From Pirellulales bacterium (GTDB taxonomy: Bacteria; Planctomycetota; Planctomycetia; Pirellulales; JACPPG01), in contig DASZWQ010000154.1 of NCBI GenBank assembly GCA_035546535.1, positions 1-64,000 on the forward strand: a stretch of DNA of 64,000 nucleotides, in the 5' to 3' direction. Positions 33,353-42,388 of the stretch are shown here, in pieces. Numbering within the stretch: position 1 is the stretch's first letter; each line of letters starts with the position of its first letter. The notes beneath the pieces were generated by a model. It was not told the origin of the DNA. It saw only the letters and a program-made list of their open reading frames with translations, and searched no databases. Made by a program: the position numbers and the translations under genes.

Positions 33353-36300
33353 ATGGCCATGTCATTGGAGAGCCGCTCGCGCTTGCGGGCTGGATTGTCC
33401 GTCCGCGCCATTACGCGTTCGTTGCGACTGGAACCGCTCGAGTGCCGGCGGATGCTGGCGGTTTTCAACGTCACTGCCGCGGTTGCCGATGGCGCCGCCG
33501 GCAGTCTGCGCGCCGCGCTCGTGGCCGCAGCGTCCAATGCCGATGCCTCGAACACGATCAATCTCGCCGCCGGCACCTATGCGCTGACCGATAGCACCGA
33601 CGGCAACCTGCTCGTCCACAACCTGGCGGGCGGCGCGACCAAGACGTTCGTTCTCGCCGGCGCTGCGCAAGCCACGACCATCATCCAGGGAGGCGATTCC
33701 TGGAACGATCGTATCCTGCAAATCGTCAGCGCGCCGGGCGCTGCCGTTGCCGTGACGATGAAGAATCTTTCGATCCAAGGAGGTAATGCCTTCGCGGGCG
33801 GTGCCCTCGGCGGTACGGCTGCGCTCGGCGGCGGAGTGCTGGTTGACGGCGGGCAAGTCACGCTGAGCCACGTCGGGCTTTCGAGCAATCATGCGTTTGG
33901 CACGACCGGCGCGGCGGGCGCAGCCGGCGGCGGAACCGGGGGCATCGGTGCGGCCGCTCGCGGCGGCGCGATCTATCTCGCGGCCGGGACATTGAACCTT
34001 ACACAAAGCACGCTCTCGAACAATTTCGCCTTCGGCGGAGTCGGCGGCGCCGGAGGCTTGGGCGCAAGCGCCGGCAAAAACTCCGCGCCGCACGGCGCGT
34101 CAGGAGCAGCAGGCGGAAACGGCGCCCCAGGAACTACGCCCGCCACGCCAGGCGCCGAGGGTGGGCACGGCGGAGCGGGAGGCACAGGGCACAACGGCGC
34201 GGGCGGGTCGAATGCCGTGGCGCATGCCGGGCAGGGAGGCGCCGGCGGCGCCGGGGGCGATGGCTCGGGAGGAGGAATCTACGTCGCCGCCGGTCAGTTG
34301 ACGATCACGAACACGACGTTCACCGGCAACGCGGCCGATGGCGGAACGGGCGGCGCCGGAGGATCCGGCGGTCGCGGCGCCGCGCTCAAAGGGGGCTTCG
34401 GTGGGTCGGGCGGAGCCGGTGGAACCGGCGGTGTCGGGGGACGCGGCGGTCCGGCTATCGGTGGTGGCGGAGTCGCACTGCACAGTGGCGGCGCCGGTGG
34501 AGATGGTGGCGCAGGCGGCGGTGGTGGGCGCGGAGGGCTCGGCGGCAATGGCGCCGCTGGCGCCGGTGGCGGCGCGGGGGGCGCTGGCGGCAATGGCTAT
34601 GGCGGCGCGCTTTATGTCGCGGCAGGAAGTGTTGTTTTTCAAACGGACACACTGCAGTCCAATTCCGCGGTGGGCGGCACCGGTGGTCGTGGCGGCGATG
34701 CCGGTCAAGGAGGCGCAGGCAACACCGGGGGCTGTGGTGGACCTGGGGGGCGCGGCGGCTCGGGAGGGCGCGGGGGGGGCGACGGCGGTTCCAACGCCGG
34801 TGCTGGCGGCCTCGGTCACTCCGGAGGCCTCGCCGGCGCAGCGGCCAATGGCGGAGCGGGCGCCGTCGGCGGCGTTGGAGGAGCGGGCGGTAACGGCGGC
34901 AATGGCGCCGGCGGCGCGATTTATTTACTCGGCGGCACGTTGGGGCTCGGCAGCGTTAGCATCACATCGAATGCCGCCTATGGTGGCGATGCCGGAGTCG
35001 GCGGCAATGGCGCCACCGGCGGCGCCGGAGGGCGCGGTGGCCCTGGCGGCGCCGGAGGCAACGGTGGTCGCGGCGGCGCAGGTGCGAACAACGCCGTTGG
35101 CCTCCTCGGCGCGGTCGGTGGCCAAGGCGGAAATGGGGCGGTCGCCGCCGCGGGTGCCGTCGGAGGACGCGGCGGCAACGGCGGCCTCGGCGGCGTCGGC
35201 GGTCAGGGAGGCGACGCTTTCGGCGGCGGCATGGCATTGCGCGGCGGAGCAGCCGGTCTTAGCGCGGTCACACTTTCGTCGAACAGCGCCTTCGGAGCGA
35301 CGGGTGCGCCAGGCGGCGAGGGAGGAGCCGGTGGAACCGGCGGCGACGGCGGTCATGGAGGACAAGGGGGCGCAGGGGGTGACGGCGGCTCGGCAGGCCA
35401 AAACGCGCAGCTGCAACTCCTGCCCACCGGCGGCACCGCCGGTGGCGGTGGACGCGGCGGCACCGGCGGCGTCGGGGGCGCGGGCGGTAATGGCGCGAAC
35501 GGCGGCGCGGGGGGCGGCGGCGGAGACGCGATCGGCGGAAGCGTCTACTTAGATGGCGCTCAGCTCAACATTGGCCCTGGCACGACGTACTCCGGCACCG
35601 CGCTGGCCGGCGGCGGCGGTAGCGGTGGCAACATCGGCCTGGCAGGCGCTGGTGGCCATGGTGGTGCGGCGGGCGCAGGCGGGGCCGGCGGTCACGGCGG
35701 AGCCGGGCTCACGCATGGGGGCGCAAACGGTTTGTCGGGTGCAGCTGGACAAGCAGGCGCCGGAGGAGGCAGCGGAGCCAGCGGCGGTTTCGGCGCTACG
35801 GGTGCGAGCGGGCGCTCCGCGGGCGCCGGCATCTACGTCAACAGTGGCACCGTGACCACCGTCCTGCGAGCAACTCACGCTGCCGTCGTTCAGCAGCCAC
35901 CGACAAGCATCGCGGCCGGCACTCCCTTCTCGATCGAAGTCGACGCGCTGAACGCCAATAACAACGTCGATCCGACCTACAACGGACTCATTACCGTGTC
36001 GCTCGGCAATAATCCCGGCGGTAGCGGACTTGCCGGTACGCTTTTGCTCACTGCCGTGCACGGCGTCGCGACGTTTACGAATCTCGAGCTGTTCAAGCCG
36101 GGCAGCGGGTACACGCTGAACGTCGCGGCCGCGGGAATCTCGTCGACGGCAACCAGTTCGTTTAACGTCACCGGTGCCAGCAATTTGCCGCCGAAAGTGA
36201 TCCAAGTGCTCGCGGCAGGCACGACGTGGAATCCCAGCTTTCTCAATGCCCTCAAAGTGTCTGGGCAGGGAAACGGCACGGGCTACAACCTTCCGGCCGG

Positions 36301-37168
36301 CGCAGCGCAGCTAACATCGCTTCCGTGGAGCAACGTCAATCAAATTCAAATTGCCTTCAGTGAAGCAGTCACCGTGTCGCAAGCCAGTTTGTCGCTTACT
36401 GGTTTGGGAGGCGTGTTGGCCACTACCGGCTTCTCGTACAACGCGACAGCGTTCGTTGCCACGTGGACGCTCGCCAATCCGATCGGCGCCGGCAAAGTGA
36501 CGATCAATCTGCATTCCTCCGGCACAAGTGCGGTCAAAGATTCTGGCGGCCGCGCGCTGGACGGCGAGTGGACGAACGGCGCAAGCGCTTACCCATCGGG
36601 TAATGGCACGGCTGGCGGTGATTTCAATTTTGCGATTAACGTGTTGCCGGGAGACGCGAACGGCGATGGCATCGTCAATAGCCAGGATCTAGCGCTCGTG
36701 TCGTCCAGTTGGCTGTCGTCGGGGCCGGTCGCTGATGACAATGGCGATGGCATCGTGAATAGTCAGGATCTGGCCCTGATTTCTTCACAGTGGTTGGCCG
36801 CCTTGCCGGCGGGCGGAGCGGCGTCGGGCAATAGCCAGGCGAGCAGCCTTCGGGCGAACGGCGCGCAGACGGCGGCTTTCTCGGTTTCTAGTCAGAGTGA
36901 TGCTGCGCCGGCCTTTGCAATACCAATCATCGGTCCGGTGTTGCCGCAAGCCTGGGCGAGACCGTCTGCGCAGCTTTCGGATCGTTCCGTCGCTCCGCTT
37001 CCCTCTCTTTTTGCGACGGCAGCAACGTCTGCGCGCGATCGAGCCTTCCGCCTGGAAGACGGCGCCGGTTCCGGCGGCAATCGATCTCGAGATTGGTGGC
37101 AGGGAGACGATCCGATCGGCGAAGGACTACTCAGCGTCCTGGCCACCGCTCGCCCCCACTCGCGATAA
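33353..37168 (+). CDS. Giant glycine-rich beta-helix surface protein with Ig-like and dockerin domains, copy 1
   Basis: 1271 residues, probably exported and cell-surface attached. The planctomycete N-terminal signature LEPLECRRMLAVFNV is at 26-40. A beta-helix domain (40-185) includes NTINLAAGTYAL and GGAIYLAAGTLNL-type rungs. Residues about 186-826 alternate roughly 25-residue rungs, such as GGGIYVAAGQLTITNTTF and GGALYVAAGSVVFQTDTL, with 40-80-residue blocks of GGAGGxGG. About 841-940 is an Ig-like domain (QQPPTSIAAGTPFSIEVDAL). About 946-1098 is a beta domain. The dockerin pair GDANGDGIVNSQDLALVSS and DDNGDGIVNSQDLALISS is at about 1099-1150, followed by a Ser/Arg-rich tail. The rungs suggest a polysaccharide-binding or structural fibre; no lyase catalytic residues are apparent. 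It is a tandem paralogue of the next gene. Confidence 0.88.
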   Translation: MAMSLESRSRLRAGLSVRAITRSLRLEPLECRRMLAVFNVTAAVADGAAGSLRAALVAAASNADASNTINLAAGTYALTDSTDGNLLVHNLAGGATKTFVLAGAAQATTIIQGGDSWNDRILQIVSAPGAAVAVTMKNLSIQGGNAFAGGALGGTAALGGGVLVDGGQVTLSHVGLSSNHAFGTTGAAGAAGGGTGGIGAAARGGAIYLAAGTLNLTQSTLSNNFAFGGVGGAGGLGASAGKNSAPHGASGAAGGNGAPGTTPATPGAEGGHGGAGGTGHNGAGGSNAVAHAGQGGAGGAGGDGSGGGIYVAAGQLTITNTTFTGNAADGGTGGAGGSGGRGAALKGGFGGSGGAGGTGGVGGRGGPAIGGGGVALHSGGAGGDGGAGGGGGRGGLGGNGAAGAGGGAGGAGGNGYGGALYVAAGSVVFQTDTLQSNSAVGGTGGRGGDAGQGGAGNTGGCGGPGGRGGSGGRGGGDGGSNAGAGGLGHSGGLAGAAANGGAGAVGGVGGAGGNGGNGAGGAIYLLGGTLGLGSVSITSNAAYGGDAGVGGNGATGGAGGRGGPGGAGGNGGRGGAGANNAVGLLGAVGGQGGNGAVAAAGAVGGRGGNGGLGGVGGQGGDAFGGGMALRGGAAGLSAVTLSSNSAFGATGAPGGEGGAGGTGGDGGHGGQGGAGGDGGSAGQNAQLQLLPTGGTAGGGGRGGTGGVGGAGGNGANGGAGGGGGDAIGGSVYLDGAQLNIGPGTTYSGTALAGGGGSGGNIGLAGAGGHGGAAGAGGAGGHGGAGLTHGGANGLSGAAGQAGAGGGSGASGGFGATGASGRSAGAGIYVNSGTVTTVLRATHAAVVQQPPTSIAAGTPFSIEVDALNANNNVDPTYNGLITVSLGNNPGGSGLAGTLLLTAVHGVATFTNLELFKPGSGYTLNVAAAGISSTATSSFNVTGASNLPPKVIQVLAAGTTWNPSFLNALKVSGQGNGTGYNLPAGAAQLTSLPWSNVNQIQIAFSEAVTVSQASLSLTGLGGVLATTGFSYNATAFVATWTLANPIGAGKVTINLHSSGTSAVKDSGGRALDGEWTNGASAYPSGNGTAGGDFNFAINVLPGDANGDGIVNSQDLALVSSSWLSSGPVADDNGDGIVNSQDLALISSQWLAALPAGGAASGNSQASSLRANGAQTAAFSVSSQSDAAPAFAIPIIGPVLPQAWARPSAQLSDRSVAPLPSLFATAATSARDRAFRLEDGAGSGGNRSRDWWQGDDPIGEGLLSVLATARPHSR

Positions 37169-37811
37169 GCGCCGACGCCGGTGCATGCCCAGAGCGAGCG
37201 TTCAAGCAACCGCTAGCCTGGCGAGCGCAGCGGTAGATATTCGGGCATTTTTTCGGTTCGCACCCCCCGTTTTGTTGCGTTTGCCGCGGTGCCGCCGTAC
37301 TATCCGACGTAGTCAGGGCGCGCATTCATGGGAGGCCGAGGAGATGCGCCTTCGCCACGATGGCCAGTCGCCGCCCGCCCTGGTCGGGGAAGACTCGGAG
37401 CAGGGAGAAGCTTGCGGCAGGTCGCATCATGGGCCGAATCATTGTCGCGCCGGCCACTGTGTTCAACAGCCCGCTACTCTCCAACGACTCTACGCGGAGA
37501 GCACGACCGCTTCTTTGCTCATTTGGCGACGACCGCCACGGACTACACATTCACTCATATGAATTTATAGATCGAACGGAGATTTCTCCTCGGAAGATTC
37601 CACAAGGCCGAGGATACAAACCAACGAGAGGGGCAACGGGCCAACTACGGGACCGGTTTTCGGCGCGCGAAGATTTTTCTTTGCATTCGATAAGACCGCT
37701 ATTTAGTATCGCACCGCCAGTGTCGCCTGCCCGGCATAGCTGCTCTGCATGGCAGTGTCCGTCGCGCACGCTCCCGCGTTGAGTCCGCTCCCGCTGAGAG
37801 TGTTACATCCC
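37169..37811. other. Gap between the two giant paralogous genes
   Basis: 643 bases with no supportable gene. Open frames of 64-221 codons cross it but lack start sites and homology, and the longest only continues a shifted frame of the upstream gene. AT content rises in 37480-37720, which suits a promoter region for the second giant gene, so each giant gene probably has its own promoter. The stretch GGGCATTTTTTCGG near 37238 could be part of a weak terminator, but I see no convincing stem. Confidence 0.45.
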
Positions 37812-40800
37812 ATGTCGCATCCACATCCATCCTGCCGGCGCGAGGGCTTGCGCGTCGACCGGCGCACTGCCACGCGTTCGCTAGCGCTTGAACCGCTCGA
37901 AGCGCGCCGCCTGTTGGCCGTTTTCAATGTCAACGACGTGGCCGGGCTGACCGCCGCGGTCAGCACCGCAAACCACAACGGCGATGCCACGAACACGATC
38001 AATCTCGCAGCCGGAACTTACACGCTAAATGCCAGCGCCGGCGAATTGCTGCTGCAGGATCTAAACAGCTCCGTCGCGAGTAAAGCGTTGACCATCGTCG
38101 GTGCCGGCCAAACGAAAACCGTGATCGACGGCGCGTCGGCAACCCGCGTCTTCGAAATTGCGAGCACACCTGGCGCGACGAGCTCGGCCCTCATCGAGCA
38201 CCTGAGCATCAACCACGGCAACGCCACCAACGGTGGGCAGCTAGGCACAAGCGCGGCGCTGGGTGGCGGTCTACTCATTGACGGCGGCAGCGTCACGCTC
38301 AGCGATGTAGCCATGAGAAGCGACCAGGCAAACGCCGCCGCTGGCGCAGCCGGCATCGGCGCCTTCCATGGTACGGACGGCGGCGCAGGCCAAAATGCGC
38401 GTGGCGGCGCGATCTATCTCGCCGCCGGCTCGCTGAATCTCTTCGGCTCGTTGATCGATCACGGCGTGGCCCAGGCCGGTGCAGGCGGGAACGGAGGTAG
38501 CGGCGGCATCAGCGGAGCACCGCCGATGCATGGTGCGGCGGGAAGCGCCGGTCCCAACGGCGCCAACGGTGCCATTGCGACCGGACAAGGACAGCCGGGC
38601 CAAAACGGCTTGCCGGGCACGCCTGGGAAAAATGGCATACCTGGAGGGAATGATTCTGTGCTGGTCGGGCAAGGTGGTCGTGGTGGCGACGGAGGCGATG
38701 CCGCCGGCGGCGGTCTCTATGTCGCGGGGGGGCAACTCACCATCGCGAACACGACCTTCCAAAATAACTCGGTCTTAGCCGGTCATGGCGGCGTGGGAGG
38801 CGTTGGCGCTCAGGGCAATCAGCTTGCCGGCGGCGCCGGCGGCGCTGGCGGCCAAGGGGGCAGCGGCGGAGATGGCGGGCACGGCGGACCAAACACAGGG
38901 CCTAACCCCGCCGGCAATGGTGGCAACGGCGCGGCGGGTGCGGCCGGCGGTCTGGGTGCCACCGGCGGACTCGCTGCCAACGGCGGCAACGGAGGGACCG
39001 GTGGTAATGGAGGCGATGCCGAAGGAGGTGCGATCTACCTGGCCGGCGGCAACGCGACCATGCAGACCGGCACCGTGCAAAACAACTATGCTTGGGGCGG
39101 ACGCGGCGGCGCGGGCGGAGCCGGAGGCGCAGGGGGCAACGGTGGATCGGGCGCACGCGGCGGCAACGGTGGCCGTGGTGGCTCAGGCGGCGCGGGCGGC
39201 GGTTTTGCCTCGCAAAGCCAAGCACATGGCGGCAGCGGTGGTGATGGAGGCAACGGCGCGGCGGGCGGACTCGGCGGCAACGCCCGGAATGGCGGTGATG
39301 GTGGAATCGGCGGGCTCGCCGGGACTGCGGCCGGCGCCGGCCTCTTTGTCGCCGGCGGATCGCTCACCATCACCAGCTATTCGATTACAGCCAATCAAGC
39401 AGCCGGCGGCATCGGTGGAGTGGGCGGCGCGGGGGGCGTAGGCGGACGAGGTGGTAATGGCGGCCGCGGAGGCGCCGGAGGGGATGGCGGCCGTGGCGGC
39501 TCGGGAGGACTCGGCTACAACGGCCCGATCGAACAACAGAATGGCGCGCCCGCCGGCGATGGCGGCAATGGCGGCAACGGGGCGGCAGCCGGCAATGGCG
39601 GCAACGGCGGAGCAGGAGGCGCAGGAGGCGCAGGGAACACCGCCTTCGGCGCGGGCATTGCCGTGTTTGGCGGTTCGGCCGAACTCGATAAGGATGCGCT
39701 TTTTATTAATAGCGAATTTGGCGGTGCCGGAGGGCCAGCCGGAGCGGGCGGCGCCGGAGGCGCAGGCGGCCACGGTGGCGCCGGAGGCTCAGGCGGCTCG
39801 GGCGGCTCCGGAGGGGACGGGGGAACGAGCTTCCACCGTGGCTGGCTTGTTGGTAGCGGCGGCCAAGGCGGCAATGGCGGTGCTGGCGGGCAGGGGGCGC
39901 AGGGAGGAAACGGAGGAAACGGTGGGACCTCGGGACTTTCAGGGACCGGCGGCAGCGTTTTTGGCGGCAGCATTTACCTTGGTGGCGGCGCCCTGCAGAT
40001 AGGACTGGGAACGACTTACACCGGCTTGCAAGTTGCTGCCAGTGGCGGTGTCATCGGCGCACAGGGCGCCGCGGGCTCAGGCGGTGCAGGGGGCACCGGC
40101 GGACTCGGCGGCAGTGGCGGACGCGGCGGCCTGGGGGGCCATCTCGTTCCCCGAGCCAATGGCTTCCGCGCGGCGGGCGGTGGCGACGGCGCCCAGGGAG
40201 GGACAGCGAGTGGTGGAGCACCGGGAGTCGCAGGCGGGGTCGGTGGTATCGGCAAAGCGGGTACGGCCGCCGGCAGTGGCATCTATGTCGCGGGCGGCAC
40301 GATTACCACCGCCATGCCCGCCACGCACATCGGCGTGCTATCCCAACCGCCGGCCAGCGTACACGCCGGCTCAACTTTCTCGCTACAAGTCGCCGCCGAA
40401 AATAGCAGTGGCGTTCCCGACCCAACCTATAACGGCCCGATCTCGGTAGCAATTATCACCAATCCGGGCGGCGGATCGCTCTCGGGAACGGTGACCGTCA
40501 ACGCAATCAGTGGAGTGGCGACGTTCAACGATCTGTCTATTTCGCAGCCCGGCAACGGGTACAAATTGATTGTCGCCACGGCGGGACTGACGTCGGGCTT
40601 CACGCAACTCTTCAACGTCACCAGCAGCACCTCCGGTGTACCGCCAACCGTTACCCAGGTGCTTGCCAGTGGCACGACCTGGTCGGCTTCGTTCTTGACC
40701 GCCTTGCAGGTGGCCGGGCACGGGAATGGCACCGGCTACGTCATCCCCGCCGGCGCAACACAACTGAACGCGCTTCCCTGGGCGAACGTCAATCAGATCG

Positions 40801-41822
40801 AAATCTCGTTCAGCAAGGATGTGAGCGTCTCCCAATCGAGTCTCGACCTCAGCGAGTTAGGAAGTACGATTGCGACGACTGGCTTCCGCTATTTTCCAGC
40901 CACCTTCACGGCGGTGTGGACACTGGCAAATCCGGTCGGCGCCGGCACATTGAATCTCGTTTTGCACTCGACCGGGGCAAGCGCGGTGAAGGACTCAGCC
41001 GGCAACGCGCTCGACGGTGAATGGACCAACGGCGTGAGCGCCTATCCATCAGGCAACGAAGTGGCCGGTGGGGATTTCAACTTCGGGATTCGCGTGTTGC
41101 CGGGCGACGCGAACGGCGACGGCATTGTGAACAGTCAGGATTTGGCCGCAGTCACGGTGGGCTGGCTTACCTCTGGCGTGGTCGGTGACGTGAATGCCGA
41201 CGGCATCGTCAACTCGCAGGATCTGGCGCTGATTGCCTCGCAATGGCTGGCAAGCGTGCCGGGGGGCACCGCTGCTCAGGCGAATACTTTCCGTGGCCAA
41301 AGCTTGATGGCCATAAATCTACAAACGGGGAATAGTGCCGCGGCCACCGGCATGGACGTCGGCGTTAGTGCGCCGGCGGCTACTGCCACGGTACCCGACG
41401 TGTTGGCGGCATCCACAAGCGGTGCAACGGAGACGTCGAATGTCGTACGTGCCACCATCGTCGTCGGCGCTGCTGAGCCCGCTGACTCACCGGCCGCGCA
41501 AGTTGTGCCAACTGCGTTGATGTTGCCTGAAACTTCGACGGCCGTACCGCCGCCTGCCGAGCATCTGGCATCGTTTATCTCAAGCGCGGGCAATAGCACT
41601 TTGTCTGCGCCGAACAACAACATAAGCTCGTCCGAGACCCGCGCCCCGTTCGACGGCCTTGCCGTCCTCGAAGAGCGGATCGGGGGCTGGATAGCCTCGC
41701 AGTCGGGTGAGTTGGGCCCGGCGTCGCTCGAGCTGTCCTCGCTTGGGGATAACCACCGTTGGTCGCTGGATGACGACACGCTCGACGCGATATTGGCCGC
41801 GCGTTTCGCGGTTAGATCTTAG
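37812..41822 (+). CDS. Giant glycine-rich beta-helix surface protein with Ig-like and dockerin domains, copy 2
   Basis: The ATG at 37812 places LEPLEARRLLAVFNV at residue 26, exactly as in copy 1, so I prefer it to the frame's first ATG at 37749. 1336 residues with the same plan: signature, beta-helix (40-175), alternating rungs and GGxGG blocks (176-826), Ig-like domain (836-940, SQPPASVHAGSTFSLQVAAE), beta domain with NGTGYVIPAGATQLNALPW, dockerin pair (1096-1150, GDANGDGIVNSQDLAAVTV and DVNADGIVNSQDLALIAS), then a longer Thr/Ala-rich tail of about 185 residues. The last residues, TLDAILAARFAVRS, echo the LLSVLATARPHSR end of copy 1. Its stop overlaps the convergent DUF892 gene by 4 bases. 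Confidence 0.88.
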   Translation: MSHPHPSCRREGLRVDRRTATRSLALEPLEARRLLAVFNVNDVAGLTAAVSTANHNGDATNTINLAAGTYTLNASAGELLLQDLNSSVASKALTIVGAGQTKTVIDGASATRVFEIASTPGATSSALIEHLSINHGNATNGGQLGTSAALGGGLLIDGGSVTLSDVAMRSDQANAAAGAAGIGAFHGTDGGAGQNARGGAIYLAAGSLNLFGSLIDHGVAQAGAGGNGGSGGISGAPPMHGAAGSAGPNGANGAIATGQGQPGQNGLPGTPGKNGIPGGNDSVLVGQGGRGGDGGDAAGGGLYVAGGQLTIANTTFQNNSVLAGHGGVGGVGAQGNQLAGGAGGAGGQGGSGGDGGHGGPNTGPNPAGNGGNGAAGAAGGLGATGGLAANGGNGGTGGNGGDAEGGAIYLAGGNATMQTGTVQNNYAWGGRGGAGGAGGAGGNGGSGARGGNGGRGGSGGAGGGFASQSQAHGGSGGDGGNGAAGGLGGNARNGGDGGIGGLAGTAAGAGLFVAGGSLTITSYSITANQAAGGIGGVGGAGGVGGRGGNGGRGGAGGDGGRGGSGGLGYNGPIEQQNGAPAGDGGNGGNGAAAGNGGNGGAGGAGGAGNTAFGAGIAVFGGSAELDKDALFINSEFGGAGGPAGAGGAGGAGGHGGAGGSGGSGGSGGDGGTSFHRGWLVGSGGQGGNGGAGGQGAQGGNGGNGGTSGLSGTGGSVFGGSIYLGGGALQIGLGTTYTGLQVAASGGVIGAQGAAGSGGAGGTGGLGGSGGRGGLGGHLVPRANGFRAAGGGDGAQGGTASGGAPGVAGGVGGIGKAGTAAGSGIYVAGGTITTAMPATHIGVLSQPPASVHAGSTFSLQVAAENSSGVPDPTYNGPISVAIITNPGGGSLSGTVTVNAISGVATFNDLSISQPGNGYKLIVATAGLTSGFTQLFNVTSSTSGVPPTVTQVLASGTTWSASFLTALQVAGHGNGTGYVIPAGATQLNALPWANVNQIEISFSKDVSVSQSSLDLSELGSTIATTGFRYFPATFTAVWTLANPVGAGTLNLVLHSTGASAVKDSAGNALDGEWTNGVSAYPSGNEVAGGDFNFGIRVLPGDANGDGIVNSQDLAAVTVGWLTSGVVGDVNADGIVNSQDLALIASQWLASVPGGTAAQANTFRGQSLMAINLQTGNSAAATGMDVGVSAPAATATVPDVLAASTSGATETSNVVRATIVVGAAEPADSPAAQVVPTALMLPETSTAVPPPAEHLASFISSAGNSTLSAPNNNISSSETRAPFDGLAVLEERIGGWIASQSGELGPASLELSSLGDNHRWSLDDDTLDAILAARFAVRS

Positions 41823-42388
41823 CGGGCCTTGGACGTGGCGCGCCGGCGTTTGTGCCCATGGCTACGCGACGCTTTGCTGCCTTCGGCTTCTTCGCCTTCG
41901 GGGCTTTCGGCTTCGACGTTGATTTGCTCGGCAAGCTCACTGAGCTTTCTGTCGGTCGCGGCCTCTTCGTCGAGCGTCTGTTGCAGAAGATTGCGAGCTT
42001 GATCCTCGCCGAGCAACTCGGCGTACGTGCGCACGCAGCCGTAGCCGGCGATCTCGTAATGCTCGACGCGCTGCGCGGCGGCAATCAAACCCGCGTCAAG
42101 GACTTCCGGCTCGGCGTCTTCTTGCAGCAGTTCCTCGCCTTCCTCGATCAACCCTACCATGGCCTTACACGTTTTAGCCTTCGCCTTCTGCCCGAGCAGC
42201 TCGAATACTTGCTCCAATCGTTCGGCATGTCCCTTCGTCTGCTCGAGATGATCGAGAAAGCCTTGTTGCAAATCCTCGGAATGCGCTGCCTTTGCCATTT
42301 TCGGCAGCGCTTTGATCAACTGCTTTTCCGCGCTGTACAAATCCTTGAGCTCGTCAACAAAGAGTTCCTTCAGCGTTGCCATCTTCAT
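41819..42388 (-). CDS. DUF892 ferritin-like protein (YciE/YciF family)
   Basis: 189 residues. The four-helix ferritin-like domain covers about 1-160: ATLKELFVDELKDLYSAEKQL, LDHLEQTKGHAERLEQVFE, AAQRVEHYEIAGYGCVRTYAELLG and LDEEAATDRKLSELAEQIN. The Glu and His residues in ELKDLYSAE, EQTKGH and VEHYE are the expected di-metal ligands. A basic tail (SRSHGHKRRRATSK) follows, perhaps binding nucleic acid. Family members are stress-induced in enterobacteria. The gene leads away from the giant gene and is followed upstream on the same strand by the DUF883-like and CsbD genes, both also stress-type families. Confidence 0.92.
   Translation of the reverse strand: MKMATLKELFVDELKDLYSAEKQLIKALPKMAKAAHSEDLQQGFLDHLEQTKGHAERLEQVFELLGQKAKAKTCKAMVGLIEEGEELLQEDAEPEVLDAGLIAAAQRVEHYEIAGYGCVRTYAELLGEDQARNLLQQTLDEEAATDRKLSELAEQINVEAESPEGEEAEGSKASRSHGHKRRRATSKAR

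What the first reader, a model, noticed from the sequence alone, without database searches (positions are those of the whole stretch)
33353..41822. Tandem giant proteins that alternate beta-helix rungs with GGxGG blocks
Directly visible: each protein repeats a roughly 25-residue unit (pattern GG(A/G)IY(L/V)AAGxLxLxxSTLxxNxAxG) separated by 40-80 residues of almost pure GGAGGxGG. The Gly blocks look like mycobacterial PE_PGRS domains, for which a polyglycine-II (PGII) bundle has been modelled. Here the blocks are loops emerging at the same place in successive rungs. This predicts a beta-helix fibre carrying stacked PGII sheets, an architecture I do not know as described in planctomycetes. A structural or adhesive surface role is inferred.
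Basis: partly seen in the sequence, partly recalled or inferred. Interest (0 to 1): 0.75.

Follow-up and report, generated by a model that had tools for sequence, protein, structure and literature searches.

The report
Beta-helix proteins bearing glycine-rich hairpins
Two neighbouring genes of an uncultured planctomycete bacterium encode large, probably exported proteins in which a rigid coiled core sends out a long glycine-rich hairpin of nearly constant size at most turns, a conserved design that looks like a 'mast with a sail' and that I could not find described.

Summary
Two paralogous ORFs (33353-37168 and 37749-41822, 1271 and 1357 aa) each carry eight ~25-residue rungs; the first block is short (19-22 aa), the other six are 69-86 aa. 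AlphaFold2 gives the rungs high confidence; with the blocks skipped, the model superposes on right-handed parallel beta-helices (Z 28 over 276 residues). Blocks are inserts at one turn of an ordinary 25-residue coil.

New here: most blocks are hairpins: ~11 GGX triplets out, a variable apical loop, ~11 triplets back. Unit length is almost constant (mostly 101-106 aa). Across seven homologues, gap columns fall in apices (99), rungs (6) and arms (4). Between orthologues, synonymous sites are near saturation while 94-95% of block glycines are kept. The tandem pair is syntenic in a sister species; related proteins occur patchily in other Planctomycetota.

A dockerin and a weak export motif suggest an extracellular protein; no cohesin was found. 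I rate this a new variant: a beta-helix core with a PGII-like sail, probably structural or adhesive. Function is inferred.

The parts
33353..37168 (+). P0001, 1271 aa: first beta-helix/Gly-block protein
   Evidence: ORF; ortholog 72% identical at G003:C17:10820-14371
33428..33466 (+). LEPLECRRMLAVF motif resembling the planctomycete extracellular motif (PF07595)
   Evidence: Pfam 13.6 bits, below the 25.5-bit cut-off; EPLE.RR..LAVF conserved in all 8 homologues
33467..33829 (+). N-terminal cap of the beta-helix
   Evidence: AF2 strands plus one helix, pLDDT mostly 74-96; conserved in homologues
33830..35860 (+). Eight-rung right-handed beta-helix with a Gly block between successive rungs (rungs start at 33830, 33962, 34268, 34601, 34910, 35222, 35534, 35816)
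34343..34600 (+). Gly block 3 (86 aa)
   Evidence: homologous block conserved in 8 proteins
34985..35221 (+). Gly block 5 (79 aa): 11-triplet arm, apex NAVGLLGAV, 11-triplet arm
35297..35533 (+). Gly block 6 (79 aa), apex NAQLQLLPT
35861..36646 (+). C-terminal region (possibly Ig-like), shared with other dockerin proteins of the genome
   Evidence: no Pfam hit; homologues at C83, C24, C199; the Ig-like reading is inference
36647..36784 (+). Type I dockerin
   Evidence: Pfam PF00404, E 8.9e-8, above cut-off; PDB dockerin matches
37749..41822 (+). P0002, 1357 aa: second paralogue
   Evidence: ORF; 54% identical to P0001; syntenic homologue at G003:C17:14950-18417
38262..40310 (+). P0002 beta-helix with Gly blocks (rungs start at 38262, 38403, 38706, 39024, 39333, 39648, 39963, 40275)
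   Evidence: fold inferred from alignment to P0001
41100..41237 (+). P0002 type I dockerin
   Evidence: Pfam PF00404, E 2.7e-7, above cut-off

Best explanation
Each protein is a right-handed parallel beta-helix of eight coils ('mast'). At one fixed turn of most coils the chain leaves the helix, runs out about 11 GGX triplets as an extended left-handed polyglycine-II (PGII) helix, turns in a variable apical loop, and runs back about 11 triplets to start the next coil. Coil spacing in a beta-helix and helix spacing in PGII packing are both about 4.8 angstrom (established knowledge, not measured here), so outgoing and returning arms of successive coils can stack into a two-layer PGII sandwich ('sail') held in register by the helix. 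The apical loops then line the outer edge, roughly 10 nm out if the arms are fully extended. The protein is exported and probably held outside the cell; the C-terminal dockerin may serve attachment, by a partner not found here. Likely role: a rigid surface or matrix protein displaying the apical loops for adhesion or self-assembly. Shown by computation: the beta-helix prediction, insert position, triplet register, nearly constant unit length, gaps concentrated in apices, selection on Gly. Inferred: PGII sandwich, location, function.
For: Beta-helix: rung cores pLDDT about 88-98; VIA Z 28.2, rmsd 2.5, 276 residues spread over model 12-811, i.e. the blocks fall out as loops. Insert position: relatives have rungs 24-26 residues apart without Gly blocks, some in the same protein as Gly-block rungs (L047, L074, L090). 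Hairpin: period-3 Gly with unbroken phase over 33 residues in most arms; apex about 60 residues from unit start and 34-37 from its end in most units; unit lengths mostly 101-106, with some at 94-99 and 110-117. Gap columns: apex 99, rung 6, arms 4. Selection: dS about 1.2-1.7, pN/pS 0.25-0.31 in blocks, Gly retained 94-95%. PGII: Foldseek PDB matches of model 2 are springtail and snow-flea antifreeze proteins and phage gp38, plus one weak unrelated chain; the snow-flea protein superposes at 1.6 angstrom over 57 residues. The published rule that the first Gly of GGX points inward (PMC10216338) fits the invariant period-3 Gly. Arms fall into two surface classes conserved across species: acidic X residues 34-48% versus 6-9%. 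Export motif (weak) and dockerin.
Against: Block middles are predicted with low confidence in both models, and only one of five runs of model 2 exceeded mean pLDDT 55. Structural matches to PGII proteins are weak (Z 5.5, Foldseek E 1.6e-3 at best) and helped by Gly-rich sequence. Block 2 and parts of others are GXX rather than GGX, closer to collagen-like sequence. Arms of 11 triplets are longer than the 3-5 triplets reported for PE_PGRS33. The apex-versus-arm gap count uses an alignment that may favour Gly columns. No cohesin in the genome, so the dockerin partner is unknown. No functional data.
Confidence: 0.58

Rival explanations
1. The beta-helix is real, but the Gly blocks are flexible disordered loops (hydrated or elastic bristles) without a defined PGII sandwich.
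For: Block middles have pLDDT <50 in the 811-residue model and 50-60 in the 235-residue model; Gly-rich sequence is often flexible.
Against: Period-3 Gly register, near-constant block length and almost gap-free arms, and strong Gly retention with near-saturated synonymous sites, are not expected of disordered loops. The AF2 alignments had only 11 and 8 sequences.
Confidence: 0.27
2. The blocks form collagen-like triple helices between molecules or between arms.
For: Triplet Gly, and some stretches such as GQPGQNGLPGTPGKNGIPGG in P0002.
Against: Most arms are GGX with little proline; the hairpin return and attachment to one helix fit antiparallel PGII better.
Confidence: 0.07
3. A carbohydrate-active enzyme (lyase/epimerase-type beta-helix) with decorative inserts.
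For: The best structural matches include alginate epimerases and polysaccharide lyases.
Against: In the helix region only one acidic residue (D165) and a few Y/Q/N are invariant; no cluster of catalytic-type residues. A shared fold shows no function.
Confidence: 0.06
4. Low-complexity artefact or slippage-driven junk.
For: High GC, repetitive DNA in the blocks.
Against: Open frames, purifying selection, different codons for shared glycines, conserved lengths, synteny.
Confidence: 0.02

Closest known systems
Pmp-like / right-handed parallel beta-helix surface proteins (GGGIYN..LTITNSTISGNSA repeats)
   Same: Same ~25-residue coil motif and predicted fold; plain coils occur in relatives (L051, L053, L047)
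   Different: Here most coils carry a ~69-86-residue Gly-triplet hairpin at one turn
Mycobacterial PE_PGRS (PGRS PGII 'sails'; PMC9436101, PMC10216338)
   Same: GGX triplets, inward-Gly logic, larger and aromatic residues in loops
   Different: No PE domain hit, no GRPLI; arms ~11 triplets instead of 3-5; arms tethered to a beta-helix; arm lengths nearly fixed, whereas PE_PGRS33 is rich in indels
T-even phage tail-fibre adhesin gp38 (PMC12892980)
   Same: A beta-helix domain and a PGII sandwich in one chain with variable receptor-binding loops
   Different: Described there as separate domains; here arms and coils alternate; no homology claimed
Snow-flea and springtail antifreeze PGII bundles
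   Same: Best structural matches of the two-block model
   Different: Small free bundles; X residues here are only 8-16% Thr/Ser, so an ice-binding role is not suggested

Membership tests
Right-handed parallel beta-helix proteins | Coils of about 20-30 residues stacking into a right-handed beta-helix | tested here: met
   Predicted model, rung cores pLDDT about 88-98; Z 28 to solved beta-helices over 276 residues
PE_PGRS | N-terminal PE domain | tested here: not met
   No PE domain among Pfam hits at E up to 1
PE_PGRS | GRPLI motif before the PGRS domain | tested here: not met
   Absent from both proteins
PE_PGRS | GGX-repeat PGII sandwich | tested here: inconclusive
   GGX register yes; sandwich only weakly modelled
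Type I dockerin proteins | Duplicated dockerin calcium-loop domain | tested here: met
   PF00404 above cut-off in both
Cellulosome-type dockerin/cohesin system | Cohesin partner in the genome | tested here: not met
   No PF00963 match in the 97%-complete genome; one control genome positive
Planctomycete extracellular motif (PF07595) | Motif above curated cut-off | tested here: inconclusive
   13.6-13.7 bits against a cut-off of 25.5; motif conserved in homologues
gp38 phage adhesin | Sequence homology and assembly on gp37 | not tested
   Only a weak fold match was seen (Z 3.2)

The most novel reading that the evidence does not exclude
A protein architecture not yet described: a beta-helix that acts as a template, each coil nucleating one long PGII hairpin because the two lattices share the same spacing, giving a rigid two-layer polyglycine sheet about 10 nm wide with a row of variable loops on its edge; used repeatedly by planctomycetes.
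Probability: 0.5. Interest if true: 0.78.

Novelty: new variant of a known kind. Interest (0 to 1): 0.58.

Why it matters
PGII structure is known from few solved proteins, and the PGRS sail itself rests on models. A family in which coil register fixes the length and spacing of GGX arms would give a tractable, non-pathogen system for testing how polyglycine sheets form, and a possible template for designed materials. It would also assign a structure to large, probably extracellular proteins of planctomycetes in which Pfam recognises little beyond the dockerin.

Tried and rejected
Enzyme reading: no conserved catalytic cluster. Cohesin-based anchoring: no cohesin found. Plasmid origin: no plasmid match. 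Viral relatives: none confirmed. An early alignment for the second AF2 job slid by one unit and was replaced. A sedolisin-type peptidase domain seen by eye in several relatives was not confirmed by Pfam for L046, so it is not claimed. Four short arms per block instead of one long hairpin: disfavoured by unbroken triplet phase, not excluded. Two script failures were option errors, repeated.

Full report
What is there. Two ORFs on the + strand, 33353-37168 (P0001, 1271 aa) and 37749-41822 (P0002, 1357 aa), are paralogues, 54% identical over most of their length. Pfam recognises only a type I dockerin near each C-terminus (E 8.9e-8 and 2.7e-7) and a sub-threshold planctomycete extracellular motif near the N-terminus. 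Each has eight ~25-residue rungs. The first block is 19-22 aa, the other six 69-86 aa.

Conservation. The genome (6.36 Mb, 210 contigs) has a third paralogue on contig C198. In the same genus, G003 has a syntenic tandem pair (C17) next to the same three upstream genes (methyltransferase, alpha/beta hydrolase, PQQ-like; 80-86% identical), plus homologues on C100 and C30; G002 has one; G004 has one cut off by the contig end; none was found in G001. The eight proteins aligned share rung and block positions.

Selection. Between orthologues (W1/G3a, W2/G3b) synonymous divergence in the blocks is near saturation (dS 1.5-1.7), while pN/pS is 0.25-0.31; 170/179 and 157/167 block glycines are retained and over 60% of shared Gly codons differ; non-Gly block residues are identical at only 60/115 and 49/127. 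So the glycines are under selection at the protein level.

Block anatomy. Unit length (rung start to next rung start) is mostly 101-106 in seven full-length homologues, with exceptions of 106-117 in unit 3 and 94-104 in unit 7; the partial C30 homologue is more variable (101-146). Most long blocks read as a hairpin: about 33 residues of GGX with unbroken phase, a non-Gly apex (for example NAQLQLLPT, TSFHRGWLV, TTFLHGQYD), and about 33 residues back. Period-3 Gly is significant in 87.5% of 80 arms. Units 2, 3 and 7 are less regular. Gap columns across seven homologues: apex 99, rung 6, arms 4; the alignment program may concentrate gaps there to some degree. Non-Gly identity between P0001 and P0002 is 4% in apices, 13-17% in arms and 44% in rungs. 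Arm X residues are mainly neutral in P0001, P0002 and their G003 counterparts (6-9% acidic), acidic (34-48%) in the C198, C100 and G002 proteins.

Structure. AF2 on 811 residues (11-row alignment): mean pLDDT 67, rung cores about 88-98, block middles below 50, pTM 0.65. VIA aligned 276 residues spread over 12-811 to beta-helices with Z 28; Foldseek itself gave only E about 0.01, as might be expected with long inserts. AF2 on three rungs and two blocks (235 residues, 8 rows): mean 68.8, blocks 50-60, pTM 0.48; the other four models had means of 49-55. Its seven Foldseek PDB rows were springtail antifreeze protein (two chains), snow-flea antifreeze protein (two entries), phage gp38 (two chains), and one weak unrelated chain. 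VIA: snow-flea protein Z 5.5, rmsd 1.6 over 57 residues, a value the tool warns can be a common arrangement. This favours PGII geometry without proving it. I could not inspect coordinates.

Relatives. In the order outside this genus matches are rare (6 of 196 genomes, four of them in the genus); in the class 45 of 397 genomes match, mostly in three other families; in the phylum sample 13 of 392. These counts are for the cap-to-third-rung profile, not for Gly blocks as such. Of 20 loci fetched, about half carry Gly-rich inserts between rungs, with spacings often near 50-62 or near 86-107; others have plain 24-27-residue spacing or a mixture. L047 is the clearest gradation from Gly-block rungs to plain rungs. 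L095 and L098 have units of about the window length, L098 with aromatic apices. Relatives outside Planctomycetota were not surveyed properly: the single genome-contig scan gave mainly planctomycetes, with two distant non-planctomycete matches lacking Gly blocks.

Interpretation. The simplest reading is a beta-helix with one turn expanded into a nearly fixed-length GGX hairpin. Coil spacing and PGII spacing are both about 4.8 angstrom from established knowledge, so arms of successive coils could stack into a two-layer sheet; this is an inference. The apical loops would lie on the free edge, as receptor loops do on gp38 (PMC12892980) and variable loops on the PGRS sail (PMC9436101). Function (adhesion, matrix or self-assembly) is an informed guess from extracellular signals, the dockerin, and the lack of a catalytic cluster.

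Novelty. Literature searches found no description of this combination in planctomycetes; the library holds open-access papers only. PGII and beta-helices are both known, and gp38 has both in one chain, so I call it a new variant rather than a new kind.

Noticed in passing
own genome, e.g. C83:24472, C24:31128, C199:21895 (L002-L004): The dockerin region of P0001, in some cases with the domain before it, recurs in more than 30 places of the genome, yet no cohesin was found: a large dockerin set without a known partner.
   Followed up: partly
C-terminus of P0002 (near 41760-41819) and homologues: Several dockerin proteins of the genus end in a similar short motif (for example SLDDDTLDAILAARFAVRS, SLDEDILDALLAARR), a possible sorting tail.
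   Followed up: partly
L045, L046, L047, L049, L050, L056: Relatives from other planctomycetes appear by eye to carry a sedolisin-like peptidase N-terminal to the Gly-block beta-helix; Pfam did not confirm this for L046.
   Followed up: partly
L088 (G350:C148:83000-102000): Three large Gly-block beta-helix ORFs lie in a row in another family, so the tandem arrangement recurs.
   Followed up: no
41819-42388 (-): A DUF892 gene whose 3' end overlaps the P0002 stop codon by four bases on the opposite strand.
   Followed up: no
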